Positions 1 to 2,605 of a stretch of 64,000 nucleotides of DNA are shown here, one piece after another. The notes under the pieces were generated by a model. That model ran no database searches. It had not been told where the DNA came from and saw only the letters and a list, made by a program, of their open reading frames with translations. Numbering within the stretch: the first letter of the stretch is position 1; each line of letters opens with the position of its first letter. A program made the position numbers and the translations under genes. Origin of the DNA: Pseudanabaena sp. BC1403 (lineage in GTDB: Bacteria; Cyanobacteriota; Cyanobacteriia; Pseudanabaenales; Pseudanabaenaceae); contig NZ_PDDM01000021.1 in the NCBI RefSeq assembly GCF_002914585.1, positions 1-64,000 of the forward strand. Reading direction: 5' to 3'.

Positions 1-85
1 AATATCGGGAGCCGAGTGCAGTGAAAGTTGCACGCTCGGATCTAATAGAGAGGGGCTGGGGATAATACCCCACCTCGACTCTAAC
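1..85 (+). mobile_element. 3' end of a group II intron (domains V and VI)
   Basis: Positions 9-42 form a 34-nt group II domain V: it opens GAGCCG, carries the GTGAAAGT tetraloop region and closes with the complementary CTCGGATC, which matches the canonical length and the catalytic AGC near the 5' side. Positions 46-83 fold as domain VI, with a bulged A at 78. The 3' end AAC at 83-85 fits the 'AY' ending of group II introns and puts the branch-point A 7 nt from the splice site. The rest of the intron, and any reverse transcriptase, lies outside the window. The downstream reading frame opens directly at the predicted splice site. Confidence 0.85.
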
Positions 86-806
86 AGAACTCCTCGAACC
101 CGCCAACATAGCCCTCCAAGAACGCGGACAAAAAGGCATAGTCGCGATCGTCGATAGCCTCGATCGCCTCGAAAACACCAAAGAACGCAACCAAGCCGAA
201 TATATCTTCGTCACACGCGGCGAAAAACTCCGTCAATTCCATTGCCACATCGTCTATACCACCCCCCTCGTCCTCAACTTCTCTAACTCGATCGCACCCC
301 TCAGCGATCGCTTCGGCGGCGCACCCAAAGTCCTACCAATGGTGCGCGTCAAAAATCGCGATAACCAACTCCACGCCGAAGGCATCCACCTATTACGCGA
401 CATGGTTCTCGCCCGTGCCTTTCCCGACCTCCCCTCAGAGGAACGCGCCCAATATCTCGACCAAGTATTTGAAAATCAAGAAACTTGCGATCGGCTCTGC
501 ACCGTCAGTGGTGGTCACGTCCGCAACCTCCTCGTTCTCCTATACGGTTGTCTCCAAAAACAAGACCCACCCATCGATCGCGATACCCTCGAAGAAGTAA
601 TCGCCACCCAACGCGATTCCCTCGTCAGAGCGATCACCGCCAATGAATGGGAACTTCTGCAACAAGTCAAAGCCCAAAAAGCAGTAGTCGGTGAAGAAGG
701 CTATCAAACCCTCCTCCGCAGCCTCTTTGTGTTTGAGTATCTCGACGAACTTGGCACATGGTTCGGACTTAACCCGATCCTCGCCGAAGCCGAGCAATTA
801 AAATAG
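86..806 (+). CDS. 3' exon of an intron-split P-loop ATPase gene
   Basis: An open frame continues from the predicted 3' splice site to the stop at 804-806, about 240 residues. The first ATG (339) is well inside it, so the exon probably starts at 86, on the third base of a codon. Near its start it has a Walker-B-like hydrophobic strand IVAIVDSLDRL, then a region resembling the sensor and lid parts of AAA/KAP-like ATPases. The Walker A part must lie upstream of the intron, outside the window. Function is unknown; a cytoplasmic ATPase role is inferred. Codon use is unlike the neighbours: C-ending codons (CTC, ACC, GCC, ATC) dominate, which may mean a foreign origin or a different expression class. 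Confidence 0.7.
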
Positions 807-910: not shown

Positions 911-2605
911 GTGAGTCAGCATCCCCTCGAACAGCTAAATCGCTACGACGCAAAAGCCAATGCCGAATATTACGGTCGTCGTCCTTGGTTAGCGATCGCA
1001 CGTATTTTCAAAATCATTTATTTTGCATTGAGCTTTGCGATCGCCTTTGGCTGGGATGTCTTGACAGGCAACACAGTCAGTCAGCCGAAGCTAGCTGAGC
1101 AGTTGCGCCGCATTATAACGGCTCTTGGCCCCACCTATATCAAAGTCGGGCAAGCACTATCGACAAGACCTGACTTGGTGCGGATCGATTTCCTAGAAGA
1201 ACTCACTAAACTCCAAGACCAGTTACCACCGTTTTCTAACGAACAGGCTTTTGCAATTATTGAGTCAGAGCTAGGCAAACCAGTAAATGCAGTTTATCGC
1301 AACATCTCTGAAGATGCAGTCGCGGCAGCAAGTTTAGGACAGGTTTACAAAGCCACGCTTTACACTGGCGAAGAAGTAGCCGTCAAGGTGCAGCGTCCCG
1401 CATTAGTGCCTACGCTCACCCTCGATCTCTATATCATGCGGGGCATTGCAGGCTGGCTGGGACCACTATTACCACTTAACCTCGGTAATAGTTTAGAAGC
1501 GATCGTCGATGAGTTCGGCTTAAAGCTATTTGAAGAAATCGATTACGTCCATGAGGCAACCAACGCGGAACGTTTCGCTGGTTATTTCAAAAACGATCCT
1601 GATGTCAAAGTTCCATCGATTTATCGTCAATTTAGCACTCATCGAGTTTTGACACTTGAATGGATTAATGGTATCAAGCTCACTGAAATCGACCAGATTA
1701 AATCCGCAGGACTAAACACAGACAATCTCGTAAAAATTGGTGTTATGTCTGGTTTACGTCAACTTCTAGAATTTGGCTTTTTCCACGCTGATCCACATCC
1801 TGGCAATCTCTTCGCCACCTACGATGGCAAGATGGCATATATCGATTTTGGCATGATGGATCAATTAGACCTCACTACCAAAGAGCAGTTGGTTGACTCA
1901 GTTGTTCACTTACTGAATAAGGATTACGATGAACTTGGTCAGGACTATGTGAGACTGGGATTCCTGCAACCTGACATCGAGATGAAGCCAATTGTCAATG
2001 CTCTCGAATCAGTGCTAGGCGATATCATGTCCGAGAAAGTAAAAGACTTCAACTTTAAAGTTGTGACCGATCGCTTCTCGAAAGTGATGTATGACTATCC
2101 TTTCTGTTTACCCGCCAAGTTTGCGCTCATCATTCGCTCTGTAATTACCCAAGAAGGTGTTGCTCTGAGCCTAAATCCAGAGTTTCAAATCGTGCAGGTT
2201 GCCTATCCCTACGTGGCGAGACGTTTGCTTACTGATGAATCGGAAAGTCTGCGTCAACGTTTAGTTGGAATTCTTTTCAAAGACGATAAGTTCCAATGGG
2301 CAAGATTAGAGAATTTATTGGCGATCGCTAAATCCGATAATGATTTTGACATTATCCCCACCGCAAGCATGGGATTAAAATTCCTTACTTCCAAAGATGG
2401 CGAATATATCCGCCGCCGCATTTTGTTAGCTCTTACCGAAGATAATCGCCTTCATACCGAGGAGCTAATGCGTATATGGCAAATGATTGGCGCAGATCTC
2501 GAACCTGCGAAGCTATGGGATATGGCAGTTAAGACATTAACTGGAGCAGTTCCTAAAGCGATCGCAGCGGCTCTCCCCTTCGCTGCTTTTCAAAACATCA
2601 ATTAA
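911..2605 (+). CDS. ABC1/UbiB-family atypical kinase
   Basis: The 564-residue protein has all the ABC1/ADCK/UbiB family signatures: KVGQ (78-81), the alanine-rich AAASLGQVYKA segment, the ATP-binding lysine in AVKVQRP (K159), HADPHPGN (292-299) and the metal-binding YIDFG (D312). The family consists of protein-kinase-like ATPases tied to prenyl-quinone (ubiquinone, plastoquinone, tocopherol) metabolism, usually membrane-associated. Two hydrophobic segments in the C-terminal part would suit that. The start is GTG at 911; no strong Shine-Dalgarno is visible. It is a monocistronic gene followed at once by a 19-bp hairpin. The family is certain; the substrate cannot be read from sequence. Confidence 0.93.
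   Translation: MSQHPLEQLNRYDAKANAEYYGRRPWLAIARIFKIIYFALSFAIAFGWDVLTGNTVSQPKLAEQLRRIITALGPTYIKVGQALSTRPDLVRIDFLEELTKLQDQLPPFSNEQAFAIIESELGKPVNAVYRNISEDAVAAASLGQVYKATLYTGEEVAVKVQRPALVPTLTLDLYIMRGIAGWLGPLLPLNLGNSLEAIVDEFGLKLFEEIDYVHEATNAERFAGYFKNDPDVKVPSIYRQFSTHRVLTLEWINGIKLTEIDQIKSAGLNTDNLVKIGVMSGLRQLLEFGFFHADPHPGNLFATYDGKMAYIDFGMMDQLDLTTKEQLVDSVVHLLNKDYDELGQDYVRLGFLQPDIEMKPIVNALESVLGDIMSEKVKDFNFKVVTDRFSKVMYDYPFCLPAKFALIIRSVITQEGVALSLNPEFQIVQVAYPYVARRLLTDESESLRQRLVGILFKDDKFQWARLENLLAIAKSDNDFDIIPTASMGLKFLTSKDGEYIRRRILLALTEDNRLHTEELMRIWQMIGADLEPAKLWDMAVKTLTGAVPKAIAAALPFAAFQNIN

What the first reader, a model, noticed from the sequence alone, without database searches (positions are those of the whole stretch)
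1..85. Group II intron interrupting an ATPase gene
A canonical 34-nt domain V and a domain VI with bulged A78 end exactly where an ATPase reading frame opens. Most bacterial group II introns lie outside genes or in mobile DNA; one inside a conserved chromosomal ORF would have to splice for the protein to be made, as with the few intron-split genes of cyanobacteria such as Trichodesmium.
Basis: partly seen in the sequence, partly recalled or inferred. Interest (0 to 1): 0.62.

Follow-up and report, generated by a model that had tools for sequence, protein, structure and literature searches.

The report
Mobile intron splitting an ATPase gene
In a Pseudanabaena cyanobacterium a mobile, self-splicing type of intron sits inside the gene for an accessory ATP-binding protein, so the protein can only be made if the intron is cut out of the RNA; this is a clear new example of something already known in cyanobacteria.

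Summary
Window 7-85 is the 3' end (domains V and VI, bulged A78) of a group II intron (Rfam RF00029, 54.4 bits). The window begins at the first base of contig C21, so only this end is visible. The rest of the host gene is in the same assembly: the 5' exon, with Walker A, ends contig C7 and is followed directly by GTGCG, the 5' splice signature. Three Pseudanabaena relatives hold the uninterrupted gene, joined exactly where C7's exon ends and window base 86 begins. The joined exons give 450 codons without a stop, with 21 silent and 1 replacement own-specific changes. A second copy of the 5' end closes contig C26; its flank shares 13 of 14 bases with the ATPase site, as target choice by base pairing predicts. 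Complete relatives are 2144-2186 nt; the four translated encode a reverse transcriptase/maturase-like protein. In them EBS2 pairs with IBS2 at 35 of 35 positions. Such introns in cyanobacterial genes are a known kind (PMC4424553). The own intron's interior and splicing itself were not observed.

The parts
1..85 (+). 3' terminal 85 nt of the group II intron; window base 1 is also base 1 of contig C21, so the rest of the intron is not in the window
   Evidence: Rfam; window = C21:1-64000; boundary 85|86 from empty sites
9..42 (+). domain V, 34 nt: AGC triad 10-12, GAAA 23-26, bulge 32-33, G11-A40 mismatch where the consensus has G-U
46..85 (+). domain VI with the unpaired branch-point A78 and 3' splice site ...CTCTAAC|A after base 85 (seven bases after the branch A)
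86..806 (+). 3' exon: C-terminal part of an ATP-binding P-loop protein (Walker B-like IVAIVDSLDRL, motif name recalled), stop codon 804-806; its first base completes codon 211 (phase 2)
   Evidence: the 5' exon is G000:C7:196804-197435 (L043/L090) and the intron's first 86 nt are C7:197436-197521
911..2605 (+). ABC1/UbiB-type kinase-like gene downstream (name by eye, no family search); used as a synteny anchor
   Evidence: same order in lw0831 and M085

Best explanation
This is the 3' end of a mobile group II intron of about 2.2 kb (length inferred from relatives) that retrohomed into codon 211 of an accessory P-loop ATPase gene in a Pseudanabaena strain. Shown: exact insertion without duplication or loss of target bases, sense orientation, a GUGCG 5' end, a domain V with intact triad, a bulged-A domain VI, both exons open and with the marks of purifying selection, and a second copy of the intron's 5' end with a matching 5' flank. 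Inferred: the intron RNA recognised the target through EBS1/EBS2 pairing with IBS1 (CAACAA) and IBS2 (ACTCA); an intron-encoded RT/maturase helped it insert and helps it splice; splicing removes it and restores the 450-residue protein. Unspliced transcripts stop 17 codons into the intron, between Walker A and Walker B. The stated confidence covers the element and its insertion in the gene; I put efficient splicing in vivo at about 0.75.
For: Rfam match. 5' exon followed by GTGCG at the end of C7. Uninterrupted orthologues in three relatives with an exact junction, and colinear flanks on both sides in two of them, lw0831 and M085. Rejoined frame of 450 codons, phase 2, 21 silent to 1 replacement own-specific changes, pairwise dN/dS 0.044, 0.046 and 0.081. 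Second 5' end at the end of C26, both contigs stopping 86 nt into the intron. The two 5' flanks agree at 13 of 14 positions. Ten complete relatives of 2144-2186 nt; four translated, each with an RT-like ORF, the G015 one matching RVT_1, RVT_N and GIIM. Of the 10 copies, 6 lie in sense inside ORFs that rejoin in frame by the same 3' boundary rule, though in 3 of these only 12 codons follow the junction. EBS2-IBS2 complementary in 35 of 35 pairs over 7 distinct sites; only the true assignment among 5040 permutations reaches this.
Against: The intron interior (domains I-IV, IEP) was not found in the held assembly: one domain V (150 of 211 first-look candidates scored) and no group II-type RT. The link from C7 to C21 is inferred from orthologues, not from a spanning contig, and SR411's 5.3 kb downstream of the gene do not match the first 20 kb of the window. 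A recombination between intron copies could have re-paired the flanks. The 3' end of the second copy was not found. No RNA data. The triad partner is A where the consensus has U, although this is a subfamily trait. Purifying selection may predate a recent insertion.
Confidence: 0.9

Rival explanations
1. The intron is real but is a recent, poorly spliced insertion that effectively knocks out a dispensable gene; the open exons are left over from before the insertion.
For: The gene is patchy in the genus and has 4 further matches in the same genome. A homologue in G013 is already broken by stops. The second copy lies in intergenic repeat DNA.
Against: Own-specific changes are 21 silent to 1 replacement, with no frameshift or stop. 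Sister copies in sense lie in ORFs that rejoin in frame (6 of 10 copies, 4 of 7 distinct sites), which suggests that the family splices.
Confidence: 0.25
2. The two gene halves are no longer adjacent: recombination between the two intron copies has separated them, and the gene is lost or needs trans-splicing.
For: C7, C26 and C21 all break inside the intron, so the assembly cannot say which 5' flank joins which 3' flank. Such exon shuffling was proposed for TeI4f/TeI4g in Thermosynechococcus (PMC2882425, passages).
Against: Gene order on both sides matches the unbroken locus in lw0831 and M085, so no rearrangement is needed. Both halves remain open.
Confidence: 0.04
3. The domain V/VI match is a fossil intron 3' fragment upstream of an unrelated ORF start.
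For: Only the 3' end is in the window, and many bacterial copies are truncated (PMC4424553, passages).
Against: The 5' end with GTGCG exists, joined to the other half of the same gene at the exact empty-site position.
Confidence: 0.02

Closest known systems
CL/IIB group II introns of Thermosynechococcus elongatus, TeI3/TeI4 (PMC2882425; passages read)
   Same: Cyanobacterial multi-copy introns; RT-type IEP; families set apart by their EBS; some copies in genes, one family at a conserved site inside an insertion element. The best match of the G015 IEP among solved structures is the maturase reverse transcriptase of PDB 6ME0 (220.9 bits, residues 59-562 aligned); that this is TeI4h is recalled.
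   Different: Different host genus and host gene; own IEP and domain I unseen; domain V position 32 is A in this subfamily (the T. elongatus base was not checked). An endonuclease domain in the relatives' IEP is judged by eye and by the length of the 6ME0 alignment; Pfam gave none.
In-gene group II introns of Trichodesmium erythraeum (PMC4649490; passages read)
   Same: Introns inside protein-coding genes that must splice; some genes carry several introns.
   Different: There splicing was documented in vivo for 17 introns, ten of which lack an ORF; here splicing is inferred and the complete relatives translated carry their own ORF.
Sister copies in unnamed congeneric genomes (G012, G015, G022-G025)
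   Same: 78-87% identical over the end with domains V and VI, GTGCG start and the same spacing from branch A to 3' end.
   Different: Different target sites and host genes: ThiF-like (by eye), helicase-like (Helicase_C), intergenic.

Membership tests
Group II intron (Rfam RF00029) | 34-nt domain V with AGC/CGC triad, tetraloop and two-nt bulge | tested here: met
   triad intact, triad partner at position 32 is A where the consensus has U
Group II intron (Rfam RF00029) | domain VI with bulged A seven or eight nt from the 3' splice site | tested here: met
   A78, seven bases before the end at 85
Group II intron (Rfam RF00029) | 5' end GUGYG | tested here: met
   GTGCG directly after the 5' exon at C7:197436 and again at C26:81386
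Group II intron (Rfam RF00029) | domains I-IV | not testable with these tools
   only the first 86 and last 85 nt of the own copy were found in the held assembly
Mobile (retrohoming) group II intron | precise insertion without target-site duplication or loss | tested here: met
   junction equals the empty site in three relatives
Mobile (retrohoming) group II intron | target choice by EBS-IBS pairing | tested here: inconclusive
   own copies share 13 of 14 flank bases but the own EBS is unseen; in relatives EBS2-IBS2 pairs 35 of 35 at 7 sites with permutation control; EBS1 38 of 42 without control
Mobile (retrohoming) group II intron | intron-encoded RT/maturase | tested here: inconclusive
   none found in the held own assembly; four relatives' ORFs read, the G015 one matches RVT_1, RVT_N and GIIM, and TIGR04416 at 278.5 bits, below its cut-off of 300
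CL2/IIB class | place of the IEP in the class phylogeny | not tested
   no tree was built; CL2 is suggested only by the host phylum (PMC4424553, passage: CL2 almost exclusively in Cyanobacteria)
Intron that splices in vivo | ligated exon RNA | not testable with these tools
   no RNA data

The most novel reading that the evidence does not exclude
This cyanobacterial intron subfamily is splicing-active although the triad G faces A in place of the consensus U in domain V, in every copy that I compared, and it often lives in sense inside ORFs, once as two introns in one gene. It would be a natural active-site variant of the group II ribozyme; my one targeted paper search turned up no description of it.
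Probability: 0.3. Interest if true: 0.5.

Novelty: new member of a known kind. Interest (0 to 1): 0.33.

Why it matters
It is a well-delimited natural case of a bacterial protein gene that depends on group II splicing, with empty-site relatives 94-96% identical in the exons for comparison. Together with sister copies in several host genes it gives a small comparative set for asking how bacteria tolerate introns in coding sequence, and whether the triad wobble pair can be replaced by G-A. It is otherwise ordinary for cyanobacteria.

Tried and rejected
Rejected: a fossil fragment with an unrelated ORF. Rejected: that the two RVT_1 genes found in the genome are this intron's IEP. C20 matches retron models best (Ec67 238 bits, St85 217 bits, both under cut-off) and C40 the Drt4 model (121.6 bits, under cut-off); the group II model TIGR04416 gives them 57 and 56 bits. 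Led nowhere: locating the 3' flank of copy 2 through the G018 orthologue; the 13 own-genome matches were short pieces, 190 bits at best. Reading the own EBS: the interior is not held. Why the interior is missing: no contig under 3,000 bases appears among the loci listed, so a 2-kb repeat contig may have been filtered out; this is inference. A DNA search of the 85 nt in E. coli genomes gave no match. Nine of the 17 relatives' loci scanned showed a 3' end but no 5' end with my queries and were left out of the in-gene counts. Literature: group II intron + cyanobacteri + Pseudanabaena gave one paper, seen as a listing only and not about this by title and abstract; a search for domain V, catalytic triad, G-A and cyanobacteri (four of five terms) listed five papers, of which I read passages of one, PMC4424553, and saw no report of the A variant in them. 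Searches were listings, followed up only in PMC4649490 and PMC2882425; of PMC8919778 passages were seen.

Full report
Observation. The first 85 bases of the window match Rfam RF00029 from model position 1 to 77 at window 7-85 with 54.4 bits (gathering score 40). Domain V (9-42) has the AGC triad and GAAA loop letters, and in the fold G77-A78 are unpaired in domain VI; the stretch folds with z -4.32 against 200 shuffles. The window is contig C21 from its first base, which is why only the intron's 3' end is seen. It is the only RF00029 match reported in the held genome (150 of 211 first-look candidates were scored).

The 5' half. The 3' exon protein (window 87-806) was searched in 77 genomes, own included. 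Their DNA runs ...AACAA|AGAACTCC..., joining exactly at window base 86. The corresponding 5' exon DNA of lw0831 finds one strong place in the own genome, C7:196801-197435, 96% identical; the only other match is 38 bases. There the exon ends ...CTCATCAACAA and is followed by GTGCGATTCG..., 86 bases before the contig ends (contig length). The junction cannot be slid: the last exon base (A) differs from the last intron base (C), and the first intron base (G) from the first base of the 3' exon (A).

Adjacency. In lw0831, C7's exon end maps to L093:2767 and window base 86 to L093:2768; the region upstream lies on C7 and the downstream genes on C21, in the same order. M085 (L094) agrees on both sides. 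SR411 (L034) holds the exons together and shares the upstream side, but its 5.3 kb downstream of the gene do not match the first 20 kb of the window. In UBA1465 (L037) only the 3' part of the gene matches (all). The insertion is exact, without duplication or loss.

Reading frame and selection. The joined exons are 1353 nt: 450 codons and a stop, intron in phase 2 of codon 211. Unspliced translation ends 17 codons into the intron. Pairwise dN/dS to G019, G018 and G005 is 0.044, 0.046 and 0.081; among those three it is 0.054-0.099. Changes found only in the own sequence are 21 silent and 1 replacement; the other three show 17:3 (G019), 16:2 (G018) and 14:9 (G005) (ungapped comparison from the junction). 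The insertion cannot be dated against these changes. Walker A (GHIGCGKST) is in the 5' exon and a Walker B-like strand (IVAIVDSLDRL) in the 3' exon (motif names recalled). Pfam gives only matches below cut-off to AAA/STAND/KAP-type NTPases for the intact lw0831 protein, and nothing relevant for the 3' exon alone.

Second copy and target. The 86-nt 5' end occurs once more in the genome, 100% identical, at the end of C26, which also stops exactly 86 bases into the intron. A repeat that breaks the assembly would explain these ends. The last 75 bases or so of C26's flank belong to an intergenic repeat, whose empty copies read for instance ...AACTCATCAACGA|AGC.... At positions -1 to -14 the two own flanks agree in 13 of 14; by my arithmetic the chance is about 1.6e-7 at fixed positions. 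An exact target GAACTCATCAACRAAG occurs at one place in the genome (C20:45268) among 30 places with up to two mismatches, which include the two occupied sites (control pattern: 14). By eye the C20 place is a copy of the repeat.

Relatives. The 85-nt end was found in 15 of 58 genomes searched, own included. From 17 fetched loci 10 complete copies could be delimited; 9 loci showed no 5' end with my queries. The 10 are 2144-2186 nt long. In the four that I translated, a stop-to-stop ORF of 539-568 codons was read. The G015 one matches RVT_1, RVT_N and GIIM and TIGR04416 below its cut-off (278.5 against 300). With the rule 'branch A plus seven bases', 6 of 10 lie in sense inside an ORF that rejoins in frame, 1 of 10 in antisense in an ORF, and 3 of 10 showed no convincing ORF. 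In three of the six (the same site, in G012 and twice in G024) only 12 codons follow the junction, and a one-base shift would still give 8, so the frame argument is weak there. The copies are not independent: they represent 7 distinct sites, of which 4 are sense, 1 antisense and 2 intergenic. In G024 one helicase-like gene (Helicase_C 25.8 bits, cut-off 23.5) carries two introns, both sense and phase 0.

Base pairing. Over the 7 distinct sites a single alignment column pairs with exon positions -12 to -8 in 35 of 35 positions. Among all 5040 reassignments of exons only the true one reaches 35 (best other 33), and 300 random reassignments searched over all columns and offsets reach at most 30. 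A gap-tolerant search for EBS1 gave at best 38 of 42, without a control. The family thus chooses sites by EBS2-IBS2 pairing; for the own copy the EBS is unseen.

Domain V variant. Position 32, opposite the triad G, is A in 11 of 11 copies (10 relatives and own). Among the 23 matches over cut-off in the list, I read A in 10, T in 12 and could not parse 1 (L177); the 5 listed rows below cut-off were left out. The 10 A rows are own and Pseudanabaena copies; the T rows come from G043, G044, G014 and G009, one of these (G009) having both kinds. Three plasmid relatives in Dolichospermum, Anabaena and Oscillatoria also have A, read by eye (loci, letters). So it looks like a lineage trait, not decay.

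Comparison with the known. [quoted passage not shown] PMC4649490 (passages) mentions 17 introns documented to splice in vivo in Trichodesmium, many introns there lying in protein genes. PMC2882425 (passages) describes 28 introns in T. elongatus, few in genes, one family at a conserved site in an insertion element. The present case is a new member of this kind. The gene is accessory: 4 of 25 other congeners have a match of 81% or more, one of them broken.

Limits. No RNA evidence, no interior sequence, no 3' end of the second copy, and adjacency inferred from synteny.

Noticed in passing
L136:1656-8354 (G024:C1): One helicase-like gene of a congener carries two complete group II introns in sense, so it is split into three exons that rejoin in frame.
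   Followed up: partly
window 40; copies; L148-L150: Domain V position 32 is A (opposite the triad G) in this intron subfamily, while other introns found by the Rfam search, mostly in other genomes, have U.
   Followed up: partly
L091 end (G000:C26), L107, L108, L115 (G000:C8, C20), L109-L113: A frequent intergenic repeat in Pseudanabaena (...AATAACTTCTCGGAACTCATCAACGAAGC...) holds the target of the second intron copy.
   Followed up: partly
window 791-806 against L093:3486-4341 and L094:8651-9509: Two relatives have about 860 bp more between the ATPase and the next gene, with two small ORFs that look by eye like a PIN-type toxin-antitoxin pair (no family search run); the window lacks them.
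   Followed up: partly
L041 (G000:C20:37097-38536): A retron-like reverse transcriptase gene (best NCBIfam match retron Ec67, below cut-off) in the own genome.
   Followed up: no
L042 (G000:C40:19149-20687): A Drt4-like reverse transcriptase gene (below cut-off) in the own genome.
   Followed up: no
L037 / L008 (G013): The homologue in Pseudanabaena sp. UBA1465 matches only residues 35-239 and has in-frame stops: apparently a decayed copy.
   Followed up: no
L148:2455-6182 (Dolichospermum plasmid pDol_DET69_01): Two genes annotated with a reverse-transcriptase N-terminal domain follow each other beside a related domain V, suggesting tandem or nested introns.
   Followed up: no
L085 (G015:C233): A sister intron lies antisense within an ORF that looks by eye Rpn-like, where it could not splice out of the gene's own transcript.
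   Followed up: no
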